Part shown: piece after piece, positions 17,124 to 40,169 of the stretch
How the letters are laid out: the number at the start of each line of letters is the position of its first letter
How positions within the stretch are numbered: position 1 is the first letter of the stretch
Assembly (NCBI RefSeq): GCF_900090275.1
Contig: NZ_LT607755.1
Location: 3,782,001 to 3,846,000, forward strand
Reading direction: 5' to 3'
Length of the DNA: 64,000 nt
Source of the DNA: Micromonospora zamorensis
Lineage (GTDB): Bacteria; Actinomycetota; Actinomycetes; Mycobacteriales; Micromonosporaceae
The notes under the pieces: generated by a model
What the model was told of the DNA's origin: nothing
Seen by the model: only the letters and a program-made list of their open reading frames with translations
Databases searched by the model: none
Program-made: the position numbers and the translations under genes

Positions 17124-17665
17124 GAACGCCCAAATACCCTCCGGCCGCACCAACAAACGGTCACTGGCGTGAATGCCGCAATTTAATGGCCGATCATCGG
17201 TGCAATCCGGTTCGCCATGAAATGGGAACGGGATGGCTGCGAAAGCACTCCCGTACCGGAGTTCCACCATTCAGTCGAGAACCGGTCACGTGTTCGACCC
17301 GAGCGACCGACGGCAATGGACGAACGCGCACCGGCCCCGCACCGAAAGCATCGACGGCCGACACGATCTGTGGATCCCATCAAAGATCACGAGTGTGATG
17401 ATGTGACAGGGAAACGCATCGGAACAACGACAGCTGTCGCATGAACGACTGATCACCTTTACCGGCGTGGGTAGCTTCCGAGCCGTGGGGGCGACCGATC
17501 GTCGTGTCACAGCATCCCCGCGCCGCAGCCGCTTTGCCGGTGCCGCCGACCCAGGTCGACAAACCGTCACAGCAGGCTCGGATGCGAAGTCAGGAGCCAT
17601 TGCTGGACCGGGCCGCCGCGTGGGCGGATCCGGCCGTTGCTGGCATCACGAAGGAGACGGACGCG
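17124..17665. promoter_or_regulatory. Upstream region of the NRPS operon
   Basis: 542 bp with lower GC than its surroundings and no convincing gene. It should carry the promoter of the 24-kb biosynthetic operon. Visible elements are the dyad ATCAC-GAGT-GTGAT at 17386-17399, a possible -10 TAGCTT near 17472, and the AAGGAG ribosome-binding site at 17651-17656, nine bases before ATG 17666. The frame of the first NRPS is open back to 17504, but that part lacks family similarity. Confidence 0.55.
17386..17399. promoter_or_regulatory. Palindrome ATCAC-N4-GTGAT, possible operator
   Basis: A perfect 5-bp dyad with a 4-base centre about 270 bp upstream of the NRPS start, in a relatively AT-rich stretch. 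It could be a regulator site for the biosynthetic operon. No regulator gene lies in or next to the cluster, so the binding protein would be encoded elsewhere. Confidence 0.3.
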
Positions 17666-26600: not shown

Positions 26601-29600
26601 TGGGCGTGCTGGGTGAGCTGTACCTCGGCGGCGCGGGGCTGGCGCGTGACTACCACGGCGACCCCGACCTCACGGCGCAGCGGTTCGTGTCGGACCCGTT
26701 CTCCGCCGGCCGGCTCTACCGCACCGGGGACCTCGGCCGGTGGCTGGCCGACGGCCGGATCGAGTTCGTCGGCCGCAGCGACTCGCAGGTGAAGGTCCGC
26801 GGATTCCGCATCGAACTGGGCGAGATCGAGGCGGTGCTGCGCCGCCACCCGGAGGTCCGCGACACCGCAGTGGTGGTCCGCGAGGACGACGGCGAGAAGA
26901 GCGTCGTGGCCTACCTGACGCTGACCACTGGAACGACGGCCGACGGGGACGGACCCGACGGCGGGGCGGCAGGGCAGCCCGTACCCGACTTCGACGCCGA
27001 CCCCACGCCCTGGCGGGCGTTCGCGCGCACCTACCTGCCCGACTACATGGTCCCGTCCGCGTTCGTGGTGCTCGACCGGATGCCGCTGAGCGCCAACCGC
27101 AAGGTCGACCGGGCCGCCCTACCGGCACCGGTACGCGGCGGGGCCGGCGTCGGCGCGGCACCGCCCGACACCCCGCTGCGGGCGGCGCTGGCGAAGCGGT
27201 GGGCGGCAGTGCTCGGCTACGACACCGTCGGCATCGACGACGACTTCTTCGACCTCGGCGGCGACTCCTTCAAGGCCATCAAGGCGTTGGCCGGCAACGA
27301 CCCGGCGATCAGCGTCCTCGACCTGTTCCGCCACCCGACGATCCGCTCGTTGACCGAGCACCTGGACGCGACCGGGGGGTCCGCCGGGCGGCTGCTGCAC
27401 GAGCTGACCCCGGCGCTACCGGCGACACCGACACGGCTGACGCTGGTCTGCGTACCCTTCGCCGCCGGTAGCGCGATCACCTTCCAGCCGCTGGCGGACG
27501 CCCTCCCGCCCGGCGTGCGGCTGTACGCCCTGGAGCGCCCCGGGCACGACGTGAACCGCCCGGACGAGCCCCTGCTGGGCATGGACGAGCTGGTGGACGG
27601 CTGCGTGGCCGAGGTCGTGGCGGGGATCAGCGGCCCGGTGGCGGTGTACGGGCACTGCATGGGCGGCGCCGAGGCGGTGGAGCTGGGCCGTCGGCTGGAG
27701 GCGGCCGGTGTGGAGCTGACCGGCGTGGTCATCGGCGCCCACTTCCCCGCCCCTCGGCTGCCCGGCCGGGTGTTCCGCTGGCTACGGCAGTGGTTTCCGA
27801 CGGAGCGGTGGACGTCGAAGCGTCGGACCCTGGAGTCGCTGCGGGCGATGGGCTTCTTCACCGAGGTCTTCGACGAGCGGGAGAAGGACTTCGTGATGCG
27901 CGTGGTCCTGGCCGACGCCGCGATGGGCGAGGACTACTACACCGACGTCTACGACAACGGTCTGCCCAGGAAACTGTCGGCCCCGATCGTCTGTGTGGTC
28001 GGTGGCGGAGACCGGGCCACCGAGCTGTACCAGGAGCGCTACCTGGAGTGGGAGTTCTTCTCCGACCGGGTGTCCCTGGAGGTCATCGAGGGCGCCGGCC
28101 ACTACTTCGCCAAGCACCAACCCGCCGAGGTGGCGCGCATCATCCAGGCGACCTGCGATCCGTCGAACGCGACGCCCGCCAAGCCGCCGCCCGCCACGGT
28201 TACTCCGCCGGCCGCCGCCGTGGTCGTGCCGGCGACGGACGGCACACCACCCGCCGTACGTCGGGCGATGCCCAGCCTCACCGTGTTCTACCTGATCGCC
28301 CTGGGTCAGCTCGTCTCGCTGATCGGCAGCGGACTGACCGGCTTCGGCATGGGCCTGTGGGTGTACCAGCAGACCGGGTCGGTCTCGTTGTTCGCCACGG
28401 CCACCGTCCTGGCGCTGCTGCCCGCCGTGGTGCTGTCTCCCATCGCGGGGGCGCTGGCCGACCGGTGGGACCGGCGACTCATCATGATCGTCGCGGACTG
28501 CGTGGCAGCCACCGGCACGGTGAGCCTCGCCCTGCTGCTGTGGCTCGGCCAACTCCAGCTCTGGCACGTCTTCACCGCCATCACCGTCACCGCCGTGGCT
28601 ACCGCCTTCCAGCTACCCGCCTACCTGGCGGCCGTCACGCAACTCGTGCCCAAGCGGTACTACGGGCGCGCCAACGGCATCGTCTCCCTGGGCACCGCGA
28701 CGAGCACAGTGCTGGCGCCGCTGCTCGGCGGTGCGCTGGTCATCGCGGTCGGGCTGCGCGGCGTCGTGATCATCGACCTGCTCACCTTCGCCGTCGCGGT
28801 CACCGTCACCCTGTCGGTCCGGTTCCCGAACACCCTGTTCGTCCGGCGCGAGGAGACCTTCCGGCGGGCGGTCCTGGGCGGTTGGCGGTTCATCGTGCGC
28901 CGCCACGGCCTGGTGGCCCTGGTCGTGCTGACCGCGTCGCTCAACTACTTCTTCGCCATGGTCGAGGTTCTGGTCACCCCGCTGACCCTGTCGTTCGGTG
29001 ACCCGGCGGTGCTCGGCCGGGTGCTCGCCGCCAGCGGCGTCGGCATGCTCGTCGGCTCGGTCCTCATGGGAGTGTGGGGCGGCACGGCCCGGCGGACCAC
29101 CGGCATCCTGGCGAGTGTCGTGCTCCTCGGCGCGTCGCTGCTCACTGTCGGCCTGCGCCCGAGCCCACTGTTCCCGGCCCTCGGCCTGTTCGGCATGGGC
29201 CTGGCCACGGCCCTGGTGAACACGCACTGGTTGGCCATCGTGCAGGCCAAGGTCGGGCTGGAGCTGCAGGGCCGGGTGCTCTCGATGGGCCAGATGCTGT
29301 CCTGGCTGATGGTGCCGGCCGGTTTCCTCACCGCCGGTCCGCTCGCCGAGCACGTGTTCGCCCCGATGGTGTCGCCCGGCGGCCTGCTGGCCGCTGTCGT
29401 CGGCACCGGCCCGGGCCGCGGCATGGCCCTCGCGGCGATCGTCGCCGGCCTCTGCTCGCTCGCCCTGGCCGCCGTCGGCATCGCCTACCGACCGATCCGC
29501 CACGTCGAGGACGAGCTGCCCGACAACGACCCCGGCACTGTCATCGTCGCCGACAAGGACCGCCTCCAGGCCGAGGCCGACCGACGGCTCGCCGAGCACC

Positions 29601-29662
29601 GTGCTGGGGGCGCGCAGCGGGCCGAGCCGGTCCCGGTGGGCGGGCGCGGTGGTCGTCGATGA
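17666..29662 (+). CDS. Hybrid NRPS-PKS with Cys thioesterase and fused MFS exporter
   Basis: 3,998 residues from ATG 17666. Order: C (26-460; HHVAVDEW at H169/H170/D174, final Gly replaced by Glu), A1 (500-1015), T (S1089), KS (1158-1583; C1329, H1465, H1505), AT (1680-2028; S1777 in GHSLGE, RGYH at 1873-1876), T (S2104), C (2173-2600; HHAVSDG), A2 (2660-3150), T (S3201), TE (3243-3495; C3331 in GHCMGG, D3449, H3479), Pro/Ala linker, MFS (3535-3950). A1 pocket residues read D-L-T-K-V-G-E-V-G, one change from the Asn code. A2 reads D-M-P-Q-V-G-L-V-W, nearest to Gly-type codes but uncertain. The AT looks malonyl-specific and there is no KR or DH, so the added ketide stays a beta-ketone. The frame is unbroken through the exporter. 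Its stop overlaps the next start (ATGA). Confidence 0.93.
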   Translation: MTDVMRPRQATPVVPRRRDSAGALVAATHEQRQMWSLSRLDPDPASYLVPLAYRLVGPLDVAALAGVLDALVARHAALRTTLAPGGPGSGPAEVDDAAPRLVQVVGEPQPGLLRVHDLGGLPAWQRDQEMQARMHAETRDPLDLERGPVLRASLLRFAAEEHVLLLTFHHVAVDEWSLGILHDEWERLYAAHRTGRPADLGPVVVDQRDHAAWQRDWLAGAEAAAQRDHWHAQLADAPAVLELPTRGPRPAVPSGAGATVSFPLDVPTDGLLALCRRLGVSPYMVMLATLHVLLARWTGQRDIVVGTPVANRRRSEAQQLVGLLLNTVAVRARLDDDPSFETLLARVRTAAGDALDNGELPFGTLLESLRPARRPGFAPLFQVMFVYGRETAPPSLDGIEVTPIDVPGTTAKFDLTVSVRENADGVRTVLEYRTDLFDDDAMARLAGHFQTLLRSLVAEPGAPVGSAAMLTADEYRQLVVAANATATPAEPDDLVHVLIERQARRNPDGVAVTDGDTALSYHELHTAAEALAETLRGRGVGIGSLVGVLLPRAVPFAVAVLAALRAGAAYVPMDAANPPARLRYLIEDTAAPVVLTCAELAHLVPDGLALLVPDGPALAAPDRHTPVPAAQPGGAAAGPRRRARRRPEPSTDDLAYVIHTSGSTGHPKGVMVTHRGVCNYVRWAAQAYRLRPGDTVPLHSSVGFDLTVTSLLVPLVSGATVLMLGEHLGPEALGEALRNQRPAFGLVKITPAQLNLVNHQLSPAEMAGRTRCFVIGGENLRADQVAPWRAHAPDTTLVNEYGPTETVVGCAAYEVDPSTPVDGSVPIGRPIANTELYVLDDWGNPVPVGVVGELYVGGAGVARGYLHQPTLTAARFVPHPFSSAPGARLYRTGDLVRLRPDGNLEYLGRTDSQVKLHGYRVECGEIEAAIRRCRPDSDVTVQLRRDDPDDPRLVAYVAGGAGVASRAGGAGGAEIDAAALRAALAAELPSYLVPAAIVFLDALPLTRNGKVDVAALPAAGREVPRQRAEADPDRPTPEQPASAPVEPGPANWDAARIGLERLVVDVWRDVLGVAQVGTRDNFFDLGGHSMRLLVVLKRLHERLGDVVTVTDLFRNPTVESLAAFLTTATTGTQAPAAPATTARVTRPRTGTTAQPGGLIAVVGMACRFPGARTIDEYWHNIRAGVESVREFSIEEMLADGADPTRLDDPAYVRSGTWLPGIDEFDAAFFGVTPREAQTLDPQHRMLLECAWHALEHAGYDPAGHAGRIGLFAGSGRSTYLLDNLSSHPELMHTIGEHQLSINNDKDFLLSRVAYKLDLTGPAVTVATACSTSLVAVHLGRQSLLTGESDLVLAGGVSVFPAQRRGYLYHDGGVYSPDGHCRPFSADARGSIASSGVGIVALKRLEDAVADNDTVYAVIRGSAINNDGARRTGYTAPGVDGQVAVISSALASAGVQPRSVSYVEAHGTGTSLGDPIEVTALTEAFRRGTDEQGFCALGSAKANIGHTDAAAGVAGLLKTIMALHSRTLPPTINVSRPNPAIDFESSPFYLNDTARPWPGDDGPRRAGVSSFGMGGTNAHVVLEEPPATAAAPPAPPATGPHLLVLSARTVESLDRQTRQLRDWVGAHPEADLADVAANLGRRQPMTHRRFLVAADHADALVALDAPQRQFTGVHPGGRRTLVFAFPGHGAQHVAMGAGLYRAEATYRAVVDECAEQLRDDLGLDLRTLLCPAPDGHPEAERLLARPGLIQPALFVTGYALARSLLARGVTPDLMVGHSLGEYVAACLAGVFSLADALRLVSARGELVERTPAGAMLAVSLPETAAAGLAVDGLSLAAVNAPELCVLSGAPEAIEELRQRLTADGVECRPLRVTRGYHSALLDPVLDEFADHARRVTYHEPQRPYLTNLTGGPVAPGQVTDPAYWVRHMREPVRFAESAALLAEQDVVLAELGPGHALGGLARLAGVRPGQVVAAMRHPRSDADDLTTMLDAVGRLWLSGGRVDWQAFHGGPRRRLALPGYPFERRRHWLDAVSRPDTAQPAPVPSSATAPEAPGQVEAGNRPPVSTAYVAPSTPGQEIVADLWSELLGIRPIGALDNLFELGGHSLLATQFVVRLRARLGVALPLETIFATPTVAGIAATLPQTGPAPTTTVAPRPSVAPTIPRAEPDALPAPLSSGQHRLWFLDQAYEQSAYTVGTALLLDGTLDVDTLRGALAELTRRHESLRTVFPLGPDGDPVQQVLPPGPVDLPIVCAPTGADDTAPVARSIVEPAVADAVPPWAHAALAADVGRPFDLARGPLFRAVLLRIADDRHVLSMTMHHAVSDGWSLGIVASEVATLYGAALDGRAAPLPELAVQYGDYARWQRGRLADVDSDDMRYWREQLDGVASVLEVPTDRPRPPVQTFHGAVHTRVLSPHAADELRRFSQTRGATLAMTVLSALKALLWRYTGQRDICIGTPVAGRVRAELEPMVGFFVNMLPLRTSIDGEWTFEELLQQVRRTALGAYDHQEVPFERLVDLVDAPRDLSRNPLFQVMFNLLNLPERRDLGTAGLRMVQFAVEPGIAQQDLALYAYEVTEGLRFRLEYNTDLFDAATAERMMGHLETLLAAAVADPDVRLADLAVLTPAELTRVDEWNDTATPLGWATPGRDGGTPTLVELIAHQVATNPDRPAVTFGTTTLTYAQLNARANRLAHRLRRAGVGPDGTVAVCLHRSEDLPVTLLGVLKAGGAYVPVDPDYPIERQRYVLTHSGASVLITEPGLADRFTGYAGEVLRTDASAGTGPETDPEPLAGPDHLAYVIYTSGSTGHPKGVRVTHGAIVNTLAAMRERPGLTSDGTMLAMASFAFDMSVPELFLPLVVGARMLLVGRDVGYDAPRLAALLAAEGVTLAQGTPATWRLLIESGWSGLPGLTAVCGGEAVSAPLARQLAERVGALWNLYGPTEAAVWSTMERLEPDLTHLSIGRPIGNVRAYVLDPRLRPAPVGVLGELYLGGAGLARDYHGDPDLTAQRFVSDPFSAGRLYRTGDLGRWLADGRIEFVGRSDSQVKVRGFRIELGEIEAVLRRHPEVRDTAVVVREDDGEKSVVAYLTLTTGTTADGDGPDGGAAGQPVPDFDADPTPWRAFARTYLPDYMVPSAFVVLDRMPLSANRKVDRAALPAPVRGGAGVGAAPPDTPLRAALAKRWAAVLGYDTVGIDDDFFDLGGDSFKAIKALAGNDPAISVLDLFRHPTIRSLTEHLDATGGSAGRLLHELTPALPATPTRLTLVCVPFAAGSAITFQPLADALPPGVRLYALERPGHDVNRPDEPLLGMDELVDGCVAEVVAGISGPVAVYGHCMGGAEAVELGRRLEAAGVELTGVVIGAHFPAPRLPGRVFRWLRQWFPTERWTSKRRTLESLRAMGFFTEVFDEREKDFVMRVVLADAAMGEDYYTDVYDNGLPRKLSAPIVCVVGGGDRATELYQERYLEWEFFSDRVSLEVIEGAGHYFAKHQPAEVARIIQATCDPSNATPAKPPPATVTPPAAAVVVPATDGTPPAVRRAMPSLTVFYLIALGQLVSLIGSGLTGFGMGLWVYQQTGSVSLFATATVLALLPAVVLSPIAGALADRWDRRLIMIVADCVAATGTVSLALLLWLGQLQLWHVFTAITVTAVATAFQLPAYLAAVTQLVPKRYYGRANGIVSLGTATSTVLAPLLGGALVIAVGLRGVVIIDLLTFAVAVTVTLSVRFPNTLFVRREETFRRAVLGGWRFIVRRHGLVALVVLTASLNYFFAMVEVLVTPLTLSFGDPAVLGRVLAASGVGMLVGSVLMGVWGGTARRTTGILASVVLLGASLLTVGLRPSPLFPALGLFGMGLATALVNTHWLAIVQAKVGLELQGRVLSMGQMLSWLMVPAGFLTAGPLAEHVFAPMVSPGGLLAAVVGTGPGRGMALAAIVAGLCSLALAAVGIAYRPIRHVEDELPDNDPGTVIVADKDRLQAEADRRLAEHRAGGAQRAEPVPVGGRGGRR

Positions 29663-32600
29663 GCGCCCCCGCCCGGCCCGCCGGCCCGACCCGTCGAACC
29701 GTCGACCGACGCGCCGCCGGCGTACCAGCCGACGTCGACTGTCTGCACCGGATGGTGGCCGCGCAGGCCGCCCGAACCCCGGAGGCGGAGGCGGTACGGC
29801 ACGCCGACCGCACGTGGTCGTACCGGGATCTCGACGAGGCGGCGAACCGGCTGGCCCGGGTCCTGCTCGCGCGCGGGGTGAGCCGGGAGGACCGTGTCGG
29901 CGTCTGCCTGCCCCGGACACCCGAACTGGTGGTCGCCCTGCTCGCCGTGCTCAAGGCCGGCGCCTGTTACGTCCCGCTGGACCCGGCGTACCCGCCGGCC
30001 CGGGTGGCCTTCATGGCCGCCGACTCCGGGGCCCGGCTGGTGCTCACCCGCGCCGACCTCGCCGACCGGTTCCCCGACCTGGCCGTCCCGATCGACCGAC
30101 TGGACCTGCCCAGGGACGGCACCGACCCGGCGGTGCCGACGACACCGACGGACCTGGCGTACGTCATCTACACCTCCGGCTCCACCGGGCGGCCCAAGGG
30201 CGTGGCCATCGAGCACCGCTCGGTGTCGGTGCTCATGCACTGGATCCGGCAGACCTTCGACGACACCGAACTGGGCGGCCTGCTCGCCGCCACCTCCGTC
30301 TGCTTCGACCTGTCCGTCTTCGAGATCTTCGGCCCGCTCTGCTGGGGCGGGCGGGTGCTGCTCGTCGACGACGTGCTGGCCCTCGCCGCCCCCGGCGTGG
30401 ACCGGCTGCCCGTCACACTGGTCAACACCGTGCCCTCCGCGATGGGGGAACTGCTCACCGCCGACGCCCTGCCGGCGAGCGTGCGGACGGTCTGCCTCGC
30501 CGGTGAGCCACTCACCGCCGCGCTGGCCGCCCGGGTGTGGTCGCGTCCGCACGTCCGCCGGCTCTGCAACCTCTACGGCCCGTCGGAGGACACCACCTAC
30601 TCCACCTGGGCGGAGGTGCCGCCGGACAGCGGGGACCCGCCGATCGGCCGGCCCCTGCCGCAGACCCGGGCCTACGTCCTCGACCCCGAGGGGCAGCCGG
30701 TCCCGCCGGGCGATCCGGGCGAACTCCACCTGGCCGGGGCGGGCGTGGCCCGGGGCTACCTCGACCGCCCGGAAGAGACGCGGGCCCGGTTCCTGCCCGA
30801 CCCGTTCCGCCGCGGCGAGCGGATGTACCGCACCGGCGACCGGGTCCGGCTGCGCCCGGACGGGCAACTGGCCTACCTGGGCCGACTCGACGACCAGGTG
30901 AAACTGCGCGGCTACCGGATCGAGCTGGGTGAGGTCTCCGCCCGCCTCGCGGCCCTGCCCGGCGTACGCGAGGCGACCGCCGCCGTCCGGGAGGGGCCGA
31001 GCGGGGATCCGCTGCTGGTCGGCTACCTGGTCGGCGAGCGGCGCGACGACGTCCGGGCCCGGCTGGCCGGGGTGCTGCCCGCGCCGCTGGTCCCCGCGAC
31101 GGTGGTCTGGCTGGACCGGCTGCCCACCCTGCCCAACGGCAAGGTAGACCGCTCGGCACTGCCCTCCCCCGCCCTCGGCGGCGACGCCGGGCCCGGCGCC
31201 GGGCCGTTCGACGGCATGCTCGCCGAGGTGGCGGCCGTGTGGCGCGAGGTGCTCGGCGTGCCGGTGACCACCGCCGACGACGACTTCCTCACCCTCGGCG
31301 GAGACTCCCTGCTCGCCGTACGCTGCGCCACCCGGCTGGCCGCCGCGACCGGCCGGCCGGTCCACGTCGGCGACCTCTTCGCGCACCCGACCGTCGGCGC
31401 GCTGGCGGCCCACCTCGACGGGCTGGCCGTCGACCCGACGCCGCTCGGGGAACCCGCCGGCCCGGCACCTGCCGGCCCCGCGCCGCTGTCGGCCGCGCAG
31501 GCCCGGCTGTGGTTCCTGCACCGGCTCGACCCGGCGGACACCTCGTACCTGCTGGCCTTCGCGGTGCGGTTCGACACGCCGGTGGACCTGGACCGGCTGG
31601 CCCGGGCGCTGGGTCGGGTGGTCGAGAAGCATCCGGCCCTGCGTACCGTGTTTCCGGTCGGGCCGGACGGGCCAGCGCAGCACGTCCTCCCCGGCGCCGG
31701 GCCACCGCCGCTCGTCGCGCCGTCCGAACCGGGCACCCCGCTCGACGAGCGGCTCACCCAACTCGGCGTCGAGGCCACCCGGGCCGCCATGGACCTGGCC
31801 ACCGGACCGTTGCTCCGCGCCCACCTGGTGCCGGACACCACCGGCCGTGCGGCGGCACTGCTGCTCGTCGTGCACCACATCGTCTGCGACGACTGGTCGT
31901 TCGGCCTGATCGTGCGGGAGTTGGCCCAGGCGTACGACAACGTCGCGACAACGGCCCCGGAGCCCCCGGTGGCCGGCCCGGCGGCGTTCGCCCTGGCCCA
32001 GCGGGACTGGCTGGCCGGTCCCGCCGGGCAGCGGGCGCTGGCCGACCAACTCGACGAGCTGCGCGGCGCACCCGACCTGCTCGACCTGCCCGCGACGGAC
32101 CGGCTCGACCGACGCGCGGCGCAGGCCCGACCCGACCGGGCGCCGTCCGGCGCCACCCTGCGGACCACAGTGGACCCCGCCACCGCCGAGGCGGTACGCG
32201 AACTGGCCCGGGCCGAACGGGTCAGCCTGCACATGGTCGGGCTGGCCGCCTTCGCGACAGTGCTCGGCGCCGCCACCGGCCGGCACGACCTGCTGATCGG
32301 CGTGGCCTTCGCCGGCCGCACCAGTGTCGCCGCCGAACGAAGCGTCGGCTGCCACGTCAACACCGTGCCGCTGCGGCTGCGCCCCGCGCCGGAGCGCGGT
32401 TTCGCCGACCTGCTCGCCGAGGCCCGCCGGGTCACCCTGTTCGCCGCGGCCCACCAGAACGTGCCCTTCGACCTGCTGGTGGAACGGCTGCGGCCCACCC
32501 GCCAGCCGCACCGCACTCCGCTGGTGCAGGTCGCCTTCGGCGTGCAGAACGCCCCACCGGCCCGGCACCGCACCGCGGCCGGCGTCGAGTTCACCGGCGT

Positions 32601-32820
32601 GGAACTGACCCCGGACACCGCCCGCCTCGACCTGACCCTCTGGCTCGACGAGCGGCGGGACGGGCTGGCGGCGCTGTGGACGTACCGCACCGACCTGTTC
32701 GACCACGACGGGGTGGTCACCTGGCACCGCCGGTTCACGGCGTTGCTGCGGACCGCCGCCGCCGACCCCCGACGCAGTCTGGCCGACTGCGTCGACACCC
32801 TGGGAGCGAGAGATGACTGA
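29659..32820 (+). CDS. AmbB-like NRPS, A(Ala)-T-C
   Basis: 1,053 residues. An A domain (about 20-510) with YTSGSTGRPKG and LPNGKVD has pocket residues D-L-F-N-C-A-L-T-Y, one change from the D-L-F-N-N-A-L-T-Y code known for alanine. A T domain follows (S550 in LGGDSLL), then a C domain (about 600-1045) with HHIVCDDW, where Asp replaces the usual Gly. The A-T-C order without an N-terminal C domain, the Ala prediction and the following two oxygenases plus AmbE-like NRPS match AmbB of the Pseudomonas aeruginosa AMB pathway. Predicted role: load Ala and condense it with glutamate held on the AmbE-like protein. It starts in the ATGA overlap with the upstream gene. Confidence 0.9.
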   Translation: MSAPARPAGPTRRTVDRRAAGVPADVDCLHRMVAAQAARTPEAEAVRHADRTWSYRDLDEAANRLARVLLARGVSREDRVGVCLPRTPELVVALLAVLKAGACYVPLDPAYPPARVAFMAADSGARLVLTRADLADRFPDLAVPIDRLDLPRDGTDPAVPTTPTDLAYVIYTSGSTGRPKGVAIEHRSVSVLMHWIRQTFDDTELGGLLAATSVCFDLSVFEIFGPLCWGGRVLLVDDVLALAAPGVDRLPVTLVNTVPSAMGELLTADALPASVRTVCLAGEPLTAALAARVWSRPHVRRLCNLYGPSEDTTYSTWAEVPPDSGDPPIGRPLPQTRAYVLDPEGQPVPPGDPGELHLAGAGVARGYLDRPEETRARFLPDPFRRGERMYRTGDRVRLRPDGQLAYLGRLDDQVKLRGYRIELGEVSARLAALPGVREATAAVREGPSGDPLLVGYLVGERRDDVRARLAGVLPAPLVPATVVWLDRLPTLPNGKVDRSALPSPALGGDAGPGAGPFDGMLAEVAAVWREVLGVPVTTADDDFLTLGGDSLLAVRCATRLAAATGRPVHVGDLFAHPTVGALAAHLDGLAVDPTPLGEPAGPAPAGPAPLSAAQARLWFLHRLDPADTSYLLAFAVRFDTPVDLDRLARALGRVVEKHPALRTVFPVGPDGPAQHVLPGAGPPPLVAPSEPGTPLDERLTQLGVEATRAAMDLATGPLLRAHLVPDTTGRAAALLLVVHHIVCDDWSFGLIVRELAQAYDNVATTAPEPPVAGPAAFALAQRDWLAGPAGQRALADQLDELRGAPDLLDLPATDRLDRRAAQARPDRAPSGATLRTTVDPATAEAVRELARAERVSLHMVGLAAFATVLGAATGRHDLLIGVAFAGRTSVAAERSVGCHVNTVPLRLRPAPERGFADLLAEARRVTLFAAAHQNVPFDLLVERLRPTRQPHRTPLVQVAFGVQNAPPARHRTAAGVEFTGVELTPDTARLDLTLWLDERRDGLAALWTYRTDLFDHDGVVTWHRRFTALLRTAAADPRRSLADCVDTLGARDD

Positions 32821-33880
32821 GCAGACCCGGGTCGCGCGGAGCATTCCCCGTCGCGGCCGTGAACGGAACCTGGTGGACGTCCACCCCGACTGGCCCGGCG
32901 GCCCGCTGCCGGCGCTGATCCGGGCCAACACACCCGACGTGGATCTGGCCGGCTGGCTGGCCGGACGCCGCGACGAGGTCGACGAGCTGGCCCGCCGGCA
33001 CGGGGCCGTGCTGTTCCGTGGCTTCGCCGTGGCCGGCGCCGAGGACTTCCGCACCGTGATGGCCGCGCTCTCCGACGAGGTCCTCAGCTACGGCGAACGG
33101 TCCTCGCCGCGCAGCCAGGTCACCGAGGGGGTGTACACCTCCACCGAGCACCCCGCCGACCAGCCGATCGTGCTGCACAACGAGCAGTCGTACACGGTGA
33201 ACTGGCCCCTGCGGATCGTGTTCCACTGCGAGGTGGCGCCGGGCGCGGGTGGGCGTACCCCCCTCGCGGACAGCCGCCGGGTGCTCGCCCGGCTCCGCCC
33301 GGAGACCGTCGCCGAGTTCGAGCGGCGCGGGGTGCTCTACCGGCGCAACTACCTGCCCGGCATCAGCCTGACCTGGCAGACCGCGTTCCAGACCGAACGA
33401 CGGGAGGACGTCGAGGCGTACTGCGCCCGCGCGCTGATCGACGTGGAGTGGGTCGGCGAGCGGCAGTTGCGCACCCGGCAGGTCCGCCCGGCGGTACGCC
33501 GCCACCCGGTCACCGGCGAGCGGACCTGGTTCAACCACGCGCTGTTCTTCCACGTCACCTCTTTGCCCGACGATGTCAGCGCAGGGCTGCGGGCCGCCCT
33601 GGGCGAGGAGGACCTGCCCTACCAGACCGCGTACGGCGACGGCACGCCCATCTCCGACGAGGTGCTGGCCGAGCTGCGGGCCGCGTACGCCGCCGAGACC
33701 CGCTCCTTCGACTGGCAGCGCGGGGACGTGCTGCTGGTGGAGAACATGCTGGCCGCGCACGCCCGGGATCCGTTCACCCCACCCCGGCGGATCCTCACCG
33801 CCATGTCCGATCCGACCGCCGCGCCCGAACTGACCGAGGCGAGCCACCCGATGCCGGCTCCGACCGGGGACCGGGCATGA
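32813..33880 (+). CDS. AmbC/AmbD-like Fe(II)/2-oxoglutarate oxygenase 1 (SyrP/TauD family)
   Basis: 355 residues, starting 8 bases before the end of the AmbB-like gene. The iron ligands fit the clavaminate synthase/AsnO subtype: H122-N-E124 (LHNEQSY) and distal H316 (AAHAR), with Arg 325/326 in PPRRI to hold 2-oxoglutarate. Family blocks include GAVLFRGF near residue 65 and FNHALFFH. SyrP-type relatives hydroxylate amino acids bound to a carrier protein. By analogy with AMB synthesis, one of this pair hydroxylates the Glu side chain on the AmbE-like T domain. Which of the two is AmbC and which AmbD cannot be told by reading alone; the first position corresponds to ambC. Confidence 0.88.
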   Translation: MTEQTRVARSIPRRGRERNLVDVHPDWPGGPLPALIRANTPDVDLAGWLAGRRDEVDELARRHGAVLFRGFAVAGAEDFRTVMAALSDEVLSYGERSSPRSQVTEGVYTSTEHPADQPIVLHNEQSYTVNWPLRIVFHCEVAPGAGGRTPLADSRRVLARLRPETVAEFERRGVLYRRNYLPGISLTWQTAFQTERREDVEAYCARALIDVEWVGERQLRTRQVRPAVRRHPVTGERTWFNHALFFHVTSLPDDVSAGLRAALGEEDLPYQTAYGDGTPISDEVLAELRAAYAAETRSFDWQRGDVLLVENMLAAHARDPFTPPRRILTAMSDPTAAPELTEASHPMPAPTGDRA

Positions 33881-34893
33881 GCGGGCCGGCGCCGCGTCGA
33901 CGCGCTACCGGCACGGTCAGCTCGCCGGTGTCCCGGCGGGTGCTCGTGGACGACCGGTTCGTGCTGCTCGTCGAGGCCGCCGTGCCCGACCTCGACCTGG
34001 CCGGTTGGCTCGCCGGCAGGCGCGAGGAGCTGCTCCGGGACCTGGACGAATACGGGGCGGTGTTCTTCCGCGGCTTCGAGGTGCGCACCCCCGACGACTT
34101 CAGCCAGGCCGCCCGGGCGGTCAGCCCGGACCTGCTCGGCTACCTGGAACGGGCCGCGCCCCGGCACGAGGTCGCCGACCGGGTCTTCACCTCCACCGAG
34201 TTCAACGCCGAGCAGTGGATCCCGCTGCACCACGAGATGTCGTACTCGCACAACTGGCCCAGCTACCTCTACTTCTGGTGCGCGCAGGCGGCAACCGGCA
34301 GCGGCGGGGCCACCCCGCTGGCCAGCGAACGGGTCATCACCCCGCTGATCCCCGCCGACGTCCGGGAACTCTTCCTCCGCTCCGGGGTCTGCTACGTGCG
34401 CTACTACGGCGCGCACCTGGACCTGCCCTGGCAGGAGGCGTTCCAGACCACCGACCGGGCCGAGGTGGAGGCGTACTGCCACGCCTCGGCGACCGAGTTC
34501 ACCTGGCTCGGCTCCGACGGCCTGCGAACCAGGGCCCGGCGGCAGGCGGTCGCCACGCATCCGCGTACCGGGGAGACGGTGTGGTTCAACCACGCCCACC
34601 TGTTCCACGTGTCGAACATGCCGGCCGAGGTGTCCGGCGCGCTGCTGCGCGAGTACGGCCCGGACGGGTTGCCCCGCAACGCGTATCTCGGTGACGGGCA
34701 GCCGATCCCCGACGAGGTGGTCGCCGGGCTGCGCGAGCTGTATCGGGAACACGCGGTGTCGGTTCCCTGGCAGCGCGGCGACGTGCTGGTGGTGGACAAC
34801 TTCCTGGCGACCCACGGTCGCGAACCCTTCAGCGGCGACCGGCAGATCCTGGTCGCCATGTCCGACCTCTACATCAACCGGAGCGTTCTGTGA
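33877..34893 (+). CDS. AmbC/AmbD-like Fe(II)/2-oxoglutarate oxygenase 2 (SyrP/TauD family)
   Basis: 338 residues, start coupled to the previous stop by ATGA. It is a paralogue of the preceding gene: shared LAGWLAGRR near the beginning, GAVFFRGFEV, the metal motif H118-H-E120 (LHHEMSY), distal H313 (ATHGREPF), R322 and FNHAHLFHV. In the AMB pathway two such enzymes together hydroxylate the glutamyl side chain and remove its distal carboxylate to create the methoxyvinyl group. This gene occupies the ambD position. Its GTGA junction with the next gene keeps the cassette translationally linked. Confidence 0.88.
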   Translation: MSGPAPRRRATGTVSSPVSRRVLVDDRFVLLVEAAVPDLDLAGWLAGRREELLRDLDEYGAVFFRGFEVRTPDDFSQAARAVSPDLLGYLERAAPRHEVADRVFTSTEFNAEQWIPLHHEMSYSHNWPSYLYFWCAQAATGSGGATPLASERVITPLIPADVRELFLRSGVCYVRYYGAHLDLPWQEAFQTTDRAEVEAYCHASATEFTWLGSDGLRTRARRQAVATHPRTGETVWFNHAHLFHVSNMPAEVSGALLREYGPDGLPRNAYLGDGQPIPDEVVAGLRELYREHAVSVPWQRGDVLVVDNFLATHGREPFSGDRQILVAMSDLYINRSVL

Positions 34894-37800
34894 ACGGTTA
34901 CCGTCTGTCCCCCGTCCAGCGGCTCGCCTGGTCGGCCAAGCAGGACCTGGTCCGGGCGCGGGTGCGGTTGGACCGCCCGCTGGACCGGGCCCGGTTGCAG
35001 AGCGCCCTGGACGCGGTGGTGGCCCGGCACGAGGCACTGCGCCTGACCCTGGTGCACCACCCGGGTCTGCGGGTGCCGATGCAGGACGTCGACGACGACC
35101 GCAGCGTCACCGTCGGCGCGCAGGGCGAGCTGTCGGTGACCCTCACCGACGATGCGCTGGAGCTGACCGCCACCCCGCTGATCGCCGACCCGGCCAGCCT
35201 GCGTCTGGTCCTCGCCGACCTGGCCCGGGGGTACGCCGGCGAGACGTTGCCGCAGGATCCGGAGGCGTTGCAGTTCCTCGACGTCGCCGAGTGGCAGCTT
35301 GAGGAGCGCGAGCAGGCACCGGCCACCGCCGCGCCGACAGTGCCGGCCGCTCGACTGGTCACCCCGCACGGGGACGACCCGACGGCCGTGGTGTCCGCGA
35401 CCGTTTCCGCCGCCGAGCTGACCGACGTGGCGCGGACCGCCGGTGTCGAGCCGGAAACCGTGCTGCTGGCCGCGTGGGCGCTCGCGGTGTCCCGCCGCGC
35501 CGAGGCACCGGAGGGCGCCGACGAGGTGGACCTGGTGCTGGCCCGGTGGAGCGACGGCCGCCATGCCGCTGGCACCGCCGAGGTGGTGGGTCCGCTGGGT
35601 GGCTACGGCCCGATCCGGTTGGCCCTGCCGCTGCCCACCACGCCCGCCGACCTGCTGGCCGTCGTCCGCGCGGCCGAGAGCACCGCCGACGACACGTTCC
35701 ACCTGGTCGACCCGGTGGACGAGCAGTCCGGGGCGGTGGCGGGCTTCGCGGTGCCCCCGGCTGCCGCGCCGGCCACTGTGGCCGGGCTCGGTGGAGTCGC
35801 CGTGCACGTCGTCACCCAACCGGCGGCGGCCGGCCCGCAGCTGACAGTGCTGGCCGAGGGCGACCGGGTCACCTTGGACGTGGTCGGCGGCCAGTGGCTG
35901 CTCGACGCGCTGCTGGCGGTCCTGCGGACCCTGCCCGCCGCGCTCTCCGGCGCCGACGTGCCGTCGGTGCTCGGCGAGGCCGAGGGCCGCTGGCTGACCG
36001 ACGCGGCGGGAACACCGTCGCAGGCGTCGGCGCGTACCCTCGTGGACCTTTTCGACGCGGGCCTGGCGGGGATGAACGAGCAGGCCGTGGCGGTGGTCGA
36101 CGCGGACGGCGCGTACACGGTCGGTGAGCTGCGGGAACGGGCCGCGCGGGTGGCCGGGGCCCTGGCCGCGCACGGCCTGTCCGGCGCCCCGGTCGGCGTG
36201 CTGGCCGACCGGTCCCGGGACACCGTCGTGGCGTTCCTCGGCGTGCTGCGCGCGGGGGCGGTCTTCGTGCCGTTGGACCCGGACGCCCCGCCCCGGCGGC
36301 TCGCCGCGCAGATCCGCGCGGTCGGCGCGGAGGTCGTCGTGGGCGACGGCGGTGCGGGGACCGTGACCGTCGGCGACCTCGTCGCGGCCGGCGACCGCCC
36401 GCCCGCCGCGGTGCCGACCCCGACCGACCCGGCGTACGTGATCTTCACGTCCGGCTCCACCGGCACTCCCCGACCGGTGCAGGTGTCGCACGGCGCCGCC
36501 GCGCATCTGGCCGACGCCTTGGAGCAGGTCGTGTACGCGGACAGCCGCCCCGGTCTGCGGGTGGCGGTGAACGCCCCGATCACCTTCGACGCCAGCGTGA
36601 AGCAGCTCGTGCAGCTCGGCCACGGCCGCAGCCTCTACCTGGTGCCCGAGCAGGTCCGCCGGGACGGGGCGGCACTGGCTGCCACGCTGGCCGACCACGC
36701 TGTCGACGTGCTCGACCTGACCCCCTCTCAACTACGCATCCTGCTCGCCGGGGCGGGTGACATCCGGCTGCCCGGCCTGCTGCTGCTCGGCGGCGAGGCG
36801 ATCGCACCCGACCTGTGGGAGACCCTCGCGGCGCTGCCCGACGTCCGGGCGGTCAACCTGTACGGCCCGACCGAGTGCACGGTGGACACCACTGCGGCGC
36901 ACGTGCGTGCCGGGGAGGCCCCGACGATCGGCCGACCCCTGCCCGGCGTCGTGGTGTGGGTGCTCGACGAGCAGCTGCGCCCGGTGCCGCCGGGCGTGGC
37001 CGGTGAACTCTGCGTCAGCGGCCCGCAGCTCGCCGACGGTTACCGGGGCGACCCGGAGGCCACCGCCCGGCGGTTCGTGACCGTGGCGCTGCCGTCCGGG
37101 CGCACCGAGCGGGTGTACCGCACCGGCGACCGGGTCCGCTTCGACGCCGACCGGCGGCTGCGCTACCTGGGTCGGCTCGACGACCAGGTGAAGATCCACG
37201 GGTTCCGGGTGGAGCCGGGCGAGATCGCGGCCGCTCTTCGCGAGCACCCGGAGGTGGCCGACGCCGCGGTGGTGGCCCGCGACGACGACCGGCACGGCGA
37301 CCGGCTCGTCGCCTACGTCCGCCCGGGTGACGCGCCGACCACTGTGGACGTCGACCGGGTCGCCGGGGTCAACCCCCACGAGACCCGCTACCTGCACGAC
37401 GAGATCTTCGTCCAGCAGGTCTACCTGCGCGACGGCATCGTGCTGCGGCCCGGAGCCACCGTCCTCGACGTGGGCGCGAACATCGGCATGTTCTCGCTGT
37501 TCGTGAACGCCGTCTGCCCGGACGCCACGATCCACGCGTTCGAGCCGGTGCCGTCGGTGGCCGACCTGCTGCGCCGCAACGTCGCCGAGTTCGGCGTGCC
37601 GGCCACCGTGCACGCCGTCGGGCTGTCCCGGGCTGCCGGGGAGGTGTCCTTCACCTACTACCCGGGCTACTCGATGATGTCCGGCCACGCCGCGTACGCC
37701 GACCCGGACGCCGAGGTGGCGGTGATCAAACGGTTCCTCGCCAACGAACGCGACGCCGGCGCCGACCGCGAGGTGCTGCTCGGCCGGGTCGACGAACTGC

Positions 37801-40169
37801 TCGCGGAACGCTTCGCCGGCCGGGAGCTCACAGTGCCGGTCCGGCCGCTGTCGGCGTTCCTCGACGAGCTCGCCCCGGAACGGATCGACCTGCTGAAGAT
37901 CGACGTACAGCGGGCCGAGGCGGACGTGCTCGCCGGGCTGGACGATCGGCACTGGCCGCTGGTCGCGCAGGTCGCCATGGAGGTGCACGACGCGCCCGGC
38001 ACCGACGCCGAGGGCCGACTGGCCGAGCTGGTCGCCACCTTCGAGGCGCGTGGCTTCGACGTGGTGACCCGGCAGGACGACCTGCTGATCGGCACCGACC
38101 GGCACACCCTGCACGCCGTACGCCCCGAGTACGCCGCCGATCCACGCCCGGCCGTGGTCGTCCCGGCCGGGCCGACGGCAGGGCCCCTCGACGAACGGCT
38201 CACCGGCTGGCTGGCCGACCGGCTCCCGGCCCACCTGGTCCCGGCGGCGGTGGTGCTCCTCGACGAACTGCCGCTGACCCGCAACGGCAAGCTCGACCAG
38301 GCGGCGCTGCCCGTGCCCCGCCTCGACCGGCCGCACGGCGGCACTGTGGTGGCGCCTGCCGACCGGGCCGAACAGATCCTCGTCGAGGCGTGGCGCGAGG
38401 TGCTCGGGGTGGCGACCGTCGGCGTGACGGACAGCTTCTTCGCGCTCGGCGGCGACTCCATCCGCAGCATCCAGATGCAGGTCGCCGCGAACAAGCGAGG
38501 GCTGTCCTTCCGGCTCAGCGACATCTTCACGTACCAGACGATCCGCGAGCTGGTCACGCACGGCGAGATCACCCTCGCCGGGACCGACGCGGTGGCCGGC
38601 TCGGCGTCGGTCCCGGCCGGACGCTTCACTCTGGTGGCCGCCGCCGACCGGGAGCTGCTGCCCGCCGGGCTGGCCGACGCGTACCCGATGACGACCCTCC
38701 AGCAGGGCATGGTCTACCACTGTGAGCTGACCGGCGACCCGGCGATGTACCACAACGTCACCGCGCACCGGATCGCCGCGTCGTTGGACGCGCCCGCGCT
38801 GCGGCGCGCGCTGGGCGGTCTGGTGGCCGCCCATCCGGTGCTGCGGACCGGGTTCGCGCTGGGCGCGTACTCCGAGCCGTTGCAGCTCGTGCACGCCGAC
38901 GTGCCGGTCGAGGTGCCGGTGACGGATCTGACCGGTGTCGAGGCACAGACCCGCCGCGCCCGGATCGACGCACTCGTGGCGGCCGACCGGGTACGTCCCT
39001 TCGACCTGGCCCGACCGCCGCTGCTGCGGTTGCACGCCGTTCGGGAGGACGCCGACGCGTTCACCCTGATCATCGCCGAGTACCACGCCATCCTCGACGG
39101 CTGGAGTCTGCACCTGTTCCGTACCGACCTGCTCGCCGCGTACGACCGGGAGCGGGCCGGCGCCTCTCATCCGGCCCGCCCCGGCCTGCCGTTCCGGGAG
39201 TACGTGGCCGCCGAGCGACGGGCCCGGACCGATGAGGCCAGCCGCCGGTTCTGGCTGGACGGTCCCGCCGCGGCGCCGCCGCTGCTGCTCGGCGGGGCAG
39301 CCCCACGGACCACCACCACCCAGCAGGTGCCACTGCGAGCCGGCACCACCGAGGCGGTCACCGAGGCGGCCCGGGCCGCCGGCGTACCCGTCAAGTCCTG
39401 GCTGCTCGCCATCCACCTGCGGATGCTCGGCGAACTCACCGGCCGCGACGACGTGGTCAGCGGACTGGTGGTCGGTGGGCGGCCGGAGGGCGAGGGCAGC
39501 GACGCCACCCTCGGGTTGTTCCTCAACACCCTGCCGGTCGGTGCGGAGCTGGGCACCCGTTCGCTGGCCGAGCTGGCCGCCGAGGTGTGGCGGGCCGAAC
39601 GGGACATGATGGGACACCACCGCTTTCCGCTGGCGGAGATCGTCCGGGCCGGAGGGGTCGGACCGTGCTTCGACCACTTCTTCAACTGGACGCACTTCAC
39701 CAACGACCCGGCCGGTGGTGGCCCCCGCATCGTGGACAGTCGGGGCGTCACCGTCGACGTGGCGTTCAGCCTCGCCGTCGACGCCGAGCTGGACGCGGAC
39801 ACCGGCCGCCTCGCCCTCACCCTCCAGTACGACCACCGCACCGTCGCCGGGGACCGGGTCGACGCGTTCGCCGATGGCTTCCGTCGCCTGCTGGCGGCCG
39901 ACCCGCACGCGCCGCTGCCCGCCGTTGCCAGCGGTGGGCAGGCGGCCGGCGATGCGTGGGCGACCCGGGTGGCGGCGGCCTGGCAGGAGGTGCTCGGGGT
40001 CGCGCCGGATGATCCGGCGACCGGATGGTCGGCCGCCGGCGGTGACTCGCTGCGCGCGCTGCGGCTGGTCACCATGCTGCGGCAGCGTCACGGCAGCGAC
40101 CTCACGCTGCCCGAGTTCGTGACGCTGGGCAGTTACGGCGCACTGGTGGACCGGGTGGCCCGGTCATGA
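34890..40169 (+). CDS. AmbE-like NRPS, degenerate C-A(Glu)-FkbM methyltransferase-T-C-T
   Basis: 1,759 residues, GTG start overlapping the oxygenase stop. The N-terminal C domain (1-370) lacks the His motif (ELTATPLIADP instead) and should be inactive. The A domain (about 385-825, resuming at 1105-1140 with LTRNGKLDQ) has pocket residues D-A-K-D-L-G-L-V-D, one change from the Glu code. A class I methyltransferase of FkbM type (about 825-1071; VLDVGANIGMFSL, LLKIDVQRAE) is inserted ahead of the last A-domain motif. Then come T (S1190), C (H1399 and D1403 in EYHAILDGW, first His replaced by Tyr) and T (S1720 in GGDSLRAL). This matches AmbE except that the terminal TE is absent. The second T has no A domain of its own and, as in AMB, may be loaded with Ala by the AmbB-like protein. 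Confidence 0.9.
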   Translation: MNGYRLSPVQRLAWSAKQDLVRARVRLDRPLDRARLQSALDAVVARHEALRLTLVHHPGLRVPMQDVDDDRSVTVGAQGELSVTLTDDALELTATPLIADPASLRLVLADLARGYAGETLPQDPEALQFLDVAEWQLEEREQAPATAAPTVPAARLVTPHGDDPTAVVSATVSAAELTDVARTAGVEPETVLLAAWALAVSRRAEAPEGADEVDLVLARWSDGRHAAGTAEVVGPLGGYGPIRLALPLPTTPADLLAVVRAAESTADDTFHLVDPVDEQSGAVAGFAVPPAAAPATVAGLGGVAVHVVTQPAAAGPQLTVLAEGDRVTLDVVGGQWLLDALLAVLRTLPAALSGADVPSVLGEAEGRWLTDAAGTPSQASARTLVDLFDAGLAGMNEQAVAVVDADGAYTVGELRERAARVAGALAAHGLSGAPVGVLADRSRDTVVAFLGVLRAGAVFVPLDPDAPPRRLAAQIRAVGAEVVVGDGGAGTVTVGDLVAAGDRPPAAVPTPTDPAYVIFTSGSTGTPRPVQVSHGAAAHLADALEQVVYADSRPGLRVAVNAPITFDASVKQLVQLGHGRSLYLVPEQVRRDGAALAATLADHAVDVLDLTPSQLRILLAGAGDIRLPGLLLLGGEAIAPDLWETLAALPDVRAVNLYGPTECTVDTTAAHVRAGEAPTIGRPLPGVVVWVLDEQLRPVPPGVAGELCVSGPQLADGYRGDPEATARRFVTVALPSGRTERVYRTGDRVRFDADRRLRYLGRLDDQVKIHGFRVEPGEIAAALREHPEVADAAVVARDDDRHGDRLVAYVRPGDAPTTVDVDRVAGVNPHETRYLHDEIFVQQVYLRDGIVLRPGATVLDVGANIGMFSLFVNAVCPDATIHAFEPVPSVADLLRRNVAEFGVPATVHAVGLSRAAGEVSFTYYPGYSMMSGHAAYADPDAEVAVIKRFLANERDAGADREVLLGRVDELLAERFAGRELTVPVRPLSAFLDELAPERIDLLKIDVQRAEADVLAGLDDRHWPLVAQVAMEVHDAPGTDAEGRLAELVATFEARGFDVVTRQDDLLIGTDRHTLHAVRPEYAADPRPAVVVPAGPTAGPLDERLTGWLADRLPAHLVPAAVVLLDELPLTRNGKLDQAALPVPRLDRPHGGTVVAPADRAEQILVEAWREVLGVATVGVTDSFFALGGDSIRSIQMQVAANKRGLSFRLSDIFTYQTIRELVTHGEITLAGTDAVAGSASVPAGRFTLVAAADRELLPAGLADAYPMTTLQQGMVYHCELTGDPAMYHNVTAHRIAASLDAPALRRALGGLVAAHPVLRTGFALGAYSEPLQLVHADVPVEVPVTDLTGVEAQTRRARIDALVAADRVRPFDLARPPLLRLHAVREDADAFTLIIAEYHAILDGWSLHLFRTDLLAAYDRERAGASHPARPGLPFREYVAAERRARTDEASRRFWLDGPAAAPPLLLGGAAPRTTTTQQVPLRAGTTEAVTEAARAAGVPVKSWLLAIHLRMLGELTGRDDVVSGLVVGGRPEGEGSDATLGLFLNTLPVGAELGTRSLAELAAEVWRAERDMMGHHRFPLAEIVRAGGVGPCFDHFFNWTHFTNDPAGGGPRIVDSRGVTVDVAFSLAVDAELDADTGRLALTLQYDHRTVAGDRVDAFADGFRRLLAADPHAPLPAVASGGQAAGDAWATRVAAAWQEVLGVAPDDPATGWSAAGGDSLRALRLVTMLRQRHGSDLTLPEFVTLGSYGALVDRVARS

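What the first reader, a model, noticed from the sequence alone, without database searches (positions are those of the whole stretch)
29659..40169. Actinobacterial counterpart of the Pseudomonas AMB (methoxyvinylglycine) cassette inside a larger NRPS-PKS operon
Seen: four consecutive genes A(Ala code)-T-C, two HxE...H Fe/2-oxoglutarate oxygenases, and degenerate C-A(Glu code)-methyltransferase-T-C-T, all overlapping. Known: in P. aeruginosa, ambB (A-T-C, Ala), ambC and ambD (two such oxygenases) and ambE (C-A(Glu)-MT-T-C-T-TE) make L-2-amino-4-methoxy-trans-3-butenoic acid from Glu and Ala. Order, domain content, predicted substrates and even the A-less second T domain agree. Inference: this actinomycete makes an oxyvinylglycine residue as part of a bigger molecule.
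Basis: partly seen in the sequence, partly recalled or inferred. Interest (0 to 1): 0.95.

Follow-up and report, generated by a model that had tools for sequence, protein, structure and literature searches.

The report
Micromonospora operon for a methoxyvinylglycine peptide
A Micromonospora bacterium carries a six-gene operon whose core matches, in gene order, domains and nearly all tested catalytic residues, the Pseudomonas pathway for the enzyme-killing amino acid methoxyvinylglycine; here that residue would likely be built into a larger peptide-polyketide, next to a vitamin-B6 enzyme that is predicted to protect the producer.

Summary
Window 29659-40169 encodes A-T-C, two Fe/2-oxoglutarate oxygenases and Q-A-MT-T-C-T. 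Adenylation codes are DLFNCALTY and DAKDLGLVD (Ala and Glu by recall). The second C domain has AmbE's own C domain as best PDB match and keeps 4 of 5 residues shown to matter in AmbE (the fifth is R to K); McyA keeps one. The oxygenase pair precedes the MT-NRPS in 37 of 80 related loci, in four phyla. P. aeruginosa AmbC/AmbD could not be fetched, so that comparison is missing. New points: (1) AmbE's TE is absent, so Ala-methoxyvinylglycine should pass to the neighbouring C-A-T-KS-AT-T-C-A-T-TE-MFS protein, whose TE has a Cys nucleophile; (2) a Cys/Met-type PLP enzyme ends the operon; its clade is in 9 of 9 cassette genomes of one sample but only 5 of 20 of another, three times near an AzlC exporter: possibly self-protection; (3) the 'Q' domain of unknown function is predicted to be a condensation fold without the catalytic histidines. 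New variant of a known kind.

The parts
17504..29662 (+). NRPS-PKS C-A(DLTKVGEVG)-T-KS-AT-T-C-A(DMPQVGLVW)-T-TE(Cys nucleophile, GHCMG)-MFS, 4052 aa as called; true start may be one of the internal start codons up to about 17705
   Evidence: Pfam; translation; codes; TE motif and start codons
27440..28123 (+). thioesterase domain, active-site Cys (GHCMG at aa 3383); 3' border estimated (Pfam matched aa 3313-3414)
   Evidence: Pfam; motif
28295..29311 (+). MFS exporter domain in the same ORF behind the TE
   Evidence: Pfam MFS_1 3.3e-28
29659..32820 (+). AmbB-like A(DLFNCALTY, Ala by recall)-T-C
32813..33880 (+). Fe(II)/2-oxoglutarate oxygenase 1 (AmbC position)
33877..34893 (+). Fe(II)/2-oxoglutarate oxygenase 2 (AmbD position)
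34890..40169 (+). AmbE-like Q-A(DAKDLGLVD, Glu by recall)-MT-T-C-T, no TE
34890..36029 (+). Q domain: predicted condensation fold without the HHxxxDG histidines
   Evidence: alignment; motif columns; model; Foldseek
37362..38234 (+). FkbM-type methyltransferase inserted in the A domain
38652..39914 (+). AmbE-type (dehydrating) condensation domain, motif YHAILDG
40166..41359 (+). Cys/Met-metabolism PLP enzyme (cystathionine gamma-synthase / methionine gamma-lyase superfamily), possible self-protection enzyme

Best explanation
The window holds a six-gene Micromonospora operon whose A-T-C, two-oxygenase, Q-A-MT-T-C-T core has the order, likely substrate codes and nearly all the tested catalytic residues of the Pseudomonas AMB pathway and is predicted to build an alanyl-methoxyvinylglycine dipeptide that would be extended by the NRPS-PKS encoded beside it. 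Steps, all inferred from the published AMB chemistry: the AmbE-like A domain loads Glu on T1; oxygenases 1 and 2 hydroxylate C3 and C4; the FkbM domain methylates the 4-OH; the A-T-C protein adds Ala; the AmbE-type C domain eliminates the 3-OH and decarboxylation leaves the enol ether; T2 takes the dipeptide. Because no TE follows T2 and the A-T-C protein can only start a chain, the dipeptide would go to the first C domain of the NRPS-PKS, gain an Asn-like residue, one unreduced two-carbon unit and one more residue, and leave by the Cys-type TE, with export by the fused MFS domain. The last gene, a PLP enzyme of the cystathionine gamma-synthase superfamily, would protect the cell, as a tolerant stand-in for, or a scavenger that spares, PLP enzymes that vinylglycines inactivate. 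The Q domain is likely a dead condensation fold that may dock the oxygenases.
For: Domains, overlaps and codes. C domain: best PDB match AmbE 7r9x; residues H1497, R1605, D1726, D1734, Q1747, named as needed in PMC10880069 (passages), are H, K, D, D, Q here, against H, K, Q, N, K in McyA; both Asp and the Gln are absent from the 3 other C domains of this operon. Oxygenase pair before the MT-NRPS in 37 of 80 loci, in 32 with a hit of the A-T-C query just upstream. Oxygenase-2 clade of 28 rows, 100/98, spans four phyla; oxygenase-1 clade of 22 rows, 90/84, Actinomycetota and Pseudomonadota. In Bradyrhizobium and Saccharothrix ALI-22-I the A-T-C and oxygenase 1 lie in one ORF. A separate TE follows the AmbE-like gene in L056, L064, L072, L052. 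PLP enzyme: ortholog of at least 81% in 9 of 9 cassette genomes and 1 of 52 others of one sample (Fisher 5.8e-10, kinship not removed); near AzlC in G025, G011 and Saccharothrix ALI-22-I.
Against: AmbC/AmbD were never compared. The same oxygenase pair (71/65% identical) sits on two Streptomyces plasmids with no MT-NRPS in the 16-20 kb read on each side, beside a C-A-T protein with code DVWHLGQID in one, so the pair alone does not prove the product. AmbB's T-C region is not specially close. C-domain changes: first His to Tyr, R1605 to Lys, D1728 to Ala. The PLP clade is missing from 15 of 20 other genomes with the cassette or most of it, M. noduli and M. pattaloongensis among them, and in S. 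fuscichromogenes lies with no cassette within 18 kb; G006 has it with a lone A domain and a CN_hydrolase but no oxygenases. In Arabidopsis AMB was judged not to act by blocking methionine synthesis (PMC6128175, passage), and the enzymes it names as inhibited are not of this superfamily. The hand-off to the NRPS-PKS rests on logic; no docking test was made.
Confidence: 0.65

Rival explanations
1. The cassette stops short: it makes 3-hydroxy-4-methoxyglutamate (or a dehydro form) as a building block, without decarboxylation to methoxyvinylglycine.
For: Related Streptomyces proteins carry Q-A-MT-T without the following C-T (1284-1291 aa, e.g. L054), so oxygenation and methylation may occur without that C domain. 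The window's C domain differs from AmbE at 1496, 1605 and 1728.
Against: The window protein does have the C domain, it is nearer to AmbE's than to any other solved C domain, and D1726, D1734, E1736 and Q1747 are kept.
Confidence: 0.17
2. The PLP enzyme is biosynthetic: it makes or modifies an unusual residue (for example the one chosen by the second NRPS-PKS A domain, code DMPQVGLVW) by a gamma-replacement.
For: It overlaps the last NRPS gene by 4 bases; gamma-substituting enzymes of this superfamily feed known NRPS pathways (recalled). G006 keeps it without the oxygenases; 15 of 20 other cassette genomes lack its clade.
Against: It recurs near an AzlC exporter in clusters with different assembly lines, including Saccharothrix ALI-22-I where the 20.7 kb read shows no further NRPS module.
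Confidence: 0.33
3. The cassette makes a dipeptide that leaves by another route, and the NRPS-PKS makes a second, separate product.
For: In G025, G011 and Saccharothrix the cassette occurs without this NRPS-PKS, so the two parts can live apart.
Against: No TE follows the AmbE-like gene here, while a separate TE does in L056, L064, L072 and L052; the NRPS-PKS begins with a C domain and has no loading module of its own.
Confidence: 0.15

Closest known systems
AMB (methoxyvinylglycine) pathway AmbA-E of Pseudomonas aeruginosa
   Same: A-T-C, two oxygenases, Q-A-MT-T-C-T in the same order; codes read as Ala and Glu; AmbE-type C domain with 4 of 5 tested residues
   Different: no TE on the AmbE-like protein; extra NRPS-PKS with Cys-TE and fused MFS; no LysE-type AmbA in the operon; a PLP enzyme gene at the end
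Saccharothrix sp. ALI-22-I cluster (L056, found here)
   Same: A-T-C and oxygenase 1 in one ORF, oxygenase 2, Q-A-MT-T-C-T, PLP enzyme of the same clade (59%)
   Different: separate TE and AzlC exporter; no NRPS-PKS in the fetched 20.7 kb
McyA-type modified C domain (microcystin)
   Same: second-best PDB match of the C domain
   Different: lacks the D1726, D1734 and Q1747 equivalents
Cystathionine gamma-synthase / methionine gamma-lyase superfamily
   Same: PF01053; best PDB matches are methionine gamma-lyases, 325 bits
   Different: apart from the three other clear PF01053 members of this genome in the tree; below the cut-off of each of the 25 NCBIfam models shown

Membership tests
AMB-type cassette | A-T-C + two Fe/2OG oxygenases + Q-A-MT-T-C-T in this order | tested here: met
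   Q
AMB-type cassette | A domains for Ala and Glu | tested here: inconclusive
   Codes DLFNCALTY and DAKDLGLVD; their reading as Ala and Glu is recalled, no assay
AMB-type cassette | AmbE-type dehydrating C domain with the residues tested in AmbE | tested here: met
   H, K, D, D, Q; 4 of 5 identical, one R to K
AMB-type cassette | oxygenases orthologous to AmbC and AmbD | not testable with these tools
   AmbC/AmbD of P. aeruginosa were not among the rows listed; two clades shared with other cassettes. Two of the 120 listed hits carry the source label 'Protein AmbC'
AMB-type cassette | A-T-C protein orthologous to AmbB | tested here: inconclusive
   AmbB T-C (7x0e) matched at 148 bits, rank 18 of 58; profile of 15 rows: 325 bits, rank 19 of 63
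AMB pathway proper (Ala-AMB as released product) | TE on AmbE and LysE-type AmbA | tested here: not met
   protein ends with T; no such gene among the operon genes or flanking ORFs scanned
Cystathionine gamma-synthase (housekeeping) | curated equivalog cut-off | tested here: not met
   e.g. 355.7 against 513 bits for PRK07811

The most novel reading that the evidence does not exclude
Micromonospora makes a Trojan-horse peptide-polyketide in which a methoxyvinylglycine warhead is carried as Ala-AMB-Asn-C2-X; the producer survives by a dedicated vinylglycine-tolerant cystathionine-type enzyme that marks such clusters for genome mining; and the mysterious Q domain of this whole family is a dead condensation fold that recruits the two oxygenases, as the X domain recruits P450s in glycopeptide synthesis.
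Probability: 0.32. Interest if true: 0.87.

Novelty: new variant of a known kind. Interest (0 to 1): 0.68.

Why it matters
In what my library searches listed, oxyvinylglycines built on an NRPS appear only as Pseudomonas AMB. A wide family of such cassettes, one of them feeding a peptide-polyketide, would mean that PLP-enzyme poisons are hidden as residues in larger molecules. The neighbouring PLP gene gives a testable resistance marker. The Q domain has been called '?', UN, U or Q with no function (PMC8949500, passage), and how AmbC and AmbD are recruited is stated as open (PMC8968710, passage): a dead condensation fold gives both questions a concrete hypothesis.

Tried and rejected
Getting P. 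aeruginosa AmbC/AmbD: three protein searches (only the best 120 rows of each are shown), the one genome-contig scan (best 80 of 214) and tblastn on plasmids did not show them. AmbB orthology by its solved T-C didomain gave no special closeness. Considered and rejected: that the oxygenases are ordinary taurine or Asn hydroxylases (they fall in two cassette-rich clades; no TauD or Asn hydroxylase of proven function was in that tree, and several single oxygenases of relatives fall outside on long branches). Considered and weakened: that the PLP enzyme is universal to the cassette (absent in 15 of 20 further genomes). The MT family itself is not specific: 43 of 80 loci found by it have fewer than two oxygenases upstream. 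Class-wide the MT match is rare, 7 of 394 genomes at 1e-45. A VIA-align run was not possible.
Full report
What is there. The window is G000:C1:3782001-3846000 of a 7.1 Mb one-contig genome. The closest homologs of its first oxygenase are from Micromonospora zamorensis and M. jinlongensis (98 and 97%). Six genes overlap head to tail from 17504 to 41359: an NRPS-PKS C-A-T-KS-AT-T-C-A-T-TE-MFS, an A-T-C protein, two TauD-family oxygenases, a Q-A-MT-T-C-T protein, and a Cys/Met-type PLP enzyme. The flanking ORFs scanned look like sugar metabolism, transport, signalling or other functions, or have no match; none clearly belongs to the operon.

Comparison with AMB. Published AmbB is A-T-C and AmbE is Q-A-MT-T1-C2-T2-TE; AmbC and AmbD hydroxylate C3 and C4 of T1-bound Glu, MT methylates the 4-OH, C2 dehydrates, and a decarboxylative shift gives Ala-AMB (PMC10880069, passages; PMC4357302, outline and sections 17 and 23; PMC8968710, passages). 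The window has the same order and domains, minus the TE. Codes, read at hand-set positions: A-T-C protein DLFNCALTY, shared by 24 of 32 loci examined, the window included (7 differ, 1 unreadable); AmbE-like protein DAKDLGLVD, with DAKDLG[LV]V[DN] in 35 of 55 rows of MT-bearing proteins (one protein listed twice). The readings Ala and Glu, and Asn for DLTKVGEVG, are recalled.

The C domain test. With the window's second C domain as query, the best solved structure is AmbE's C domain 7r9x (258 bits), then McyA 8jbr (232), then a drop to 111. [quoted passage not shown] The window has H, K, D, D, Q, and E at 1736; D1728 is Ala and the first His of the motif is Tyr. McyA has H, K, Q, N, K. The operon's three other C domains keep the His but neither Asp nor the Gln. 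Of 29 MT-bearing proteins aligned, the window included, D1726 is kept in 26, Q1747 in 25, D1734 in 22; three more gave no C-domain hit.

Distribution. The one genome-contig scan, with eight MT domains, kept the best 80 of 214 loci. In 37 of 80 two oxygenases lie directly upstream, by best match oxygenase 1 then 2 (in L104 the first reads as two pieces); in 32 of these a hit of the A-T-C query lies just before them; 43 of 80 have fewer than two. The 37 come from Actinomycetota, Pseudomonadota, Myxococcota and Acidobacteriota, among them Micromonospora, Streptomyces, Saccharothrix, Bradyrhizobium, Burkholderia, Azospirillum and Corallococcus. The tree of 75 oxygenases puts oxygenase 2 in a 28-row clade (100/98) and oxygenase 1 of Actinomycetota and Pseudomonadota in a 22-row clade (90/84); the rows in oxygenase-1 position of myxobacteria, Acidobacteriota and cyanobacteria fall elsewhere. 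In one sample the adjacent pair is in 9 of 37 same-genus genomes (own included) and in 0 of 24 further members of the order, at 1e-60. The six-gene order is found in G018, G022, G026, G033 and G035 (in G033 the A-T-C gene reads in two frames) and cut by a contig end in G009; G025 and G011 have the cassette in another NRPS context.

Against a simple reading. Two Streptomyces plasmids carry the oxygenase pair (71/65% identical) without an MT-NRPS in the stretch read, so the pair is also used elsewhere. AmbB's solved T-C didomain is not a specially close match.

Assembly line. The A-T-C protein has no N-terminal C domain and can only start a chain; the AmbE-like protein ends with T; the NRPS-PKS starts with C and ends with TE. 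The only complete order is A-T-C, then Q-A-MT-T-C-T, then NRPS-PKS. In four relatives whose downstream genes I scanned a separate TE follows the AmbE-like gene (L056, L064, L072, L052); in L057, L096, L098 and L099 NRPS matches follow instead. The NRPS-PKS TE has a Cys nucleophile (GHC) in 16 of 16 other loci of the same type that I read, some of them one genome fetched twice. No ketoreductase was found in the PKS part. That the dipeptide is handed over is inference.

The PLP enzyme. Best PDB matches are methionine gamma-lyases (325 bits), but it is below the cut-off of each of the 25 NCBIfam models shown. The genome has three other clear PF01053 members. Orthologs of at least 81% occur in 10 of 61 genomes: all 9 with the cassette, and G006 (Fisher 5.8e-10, kinship not removed). 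G006 has a lone A domain 78% identical to that of the A-T-C protein, a CN_hydrolase and the PLP gene, without oxygenases. In G025 and G011 the PLP gene lies about 20 kb from the oxygenases on the same contig, about 1.2 kb behind an AzlC amino-acid exporter gene; Saccharothrix ALI-22-I has TE, AzlC, then the PLP gene 0.4 kb on, behind its cassette. Of 20 further genomes with the cassette or most of it, 5 have this type (59-89% identical) and 15 do not, M. noduli and M. pattaloongensis among them; in S. fuscichromogenes it lies with no cassette within 18 kb. In the tree these sequences, picked by identity of 55% or more, form one group at 100/100 apart from the others. AMB inhibits many PLP enzymes (PMC4357302 and PMC6128175 passages), but the ones named there are not of this superfamily, and in Arabidopsis it was judged not to act through methionine synthesis. 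Self-protection is my preferred reading, at moderate confidence.

The Q domain. Seventeen Q domains align; at the place of HHxxxDG the Asp is kept in 17 of 17 and neither His is present in any. The model of the window's Q has mean pLDDT 84.9. Foldseek's 50 listed matches are domains of the condensation superfamily or proteins that hold one (best E 1.4e-17, TM-score by query length 0.57-0.71), including the teicoplanin X domain 4tx2 at rank 5. The X domain is known to recruit P450 oxygenases (recalled; an X-OxyB complex, 4tx3, is in the same list). Docking of the oxygenases by Q is a hypothesis.

Literature. Searches of the held library listed no paper on an actinobacterial AMB-type cassette; I saw the ranked rows only, not every hit. 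The key chemistry paper (Patteson 2018) is not held, so prior mention there cannot be excluded.

Noticed in passing
L046:12633-17979 and L051 (Streptomyces plasmids): The same oxygenase pair sits beside a C-A-T protein (code DVWHLGQID in L046); in L046 GNAT, fatty acid desaturase and diaminopimelate-decarboxylase genes follow, without an MT-NRPS: another use of the pair.
   Followed up: partly
L054:5218-11233 (Streptomyces caatingaensis): Oxygenase pair plus Q-A-MT-T of 1284 aa without the C-T end, a few kb from an acyl-AMP ligase-like gene: a shortened cassette that may stop at a hydroxy-methoxy-glutamate.
   Followed up: partly
L058, L060 (Myxococcus, Corallococcus): Cassette in which KS-AT matches follow the MT-NRPS instead of C-T, with a different code in the upstream A domain (DMISDGCLI).
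   Followed up: no
L143:969-18378 (G006): A different Micromonospora cluster with one related oxygenase (48%) and TE and MFS matches (43% and 37%) in one 2896-aa ORF, a second likely TE-MFS fusion.
   Followed up: no
L064:12828-14993 (Saccharothrix NRRL B-16348): Cassette followed by a separate TE and an M20 peptidase gene, a candidate for trimming the Ala off Ala-AMB, a step called open in the AMB papers.
   Followed up: partly
L104:5135-6411 (Alkalilimnicola ehrlichii): The first oxygenase reads as two pieces in this record; left as it is.
   Followed up: no
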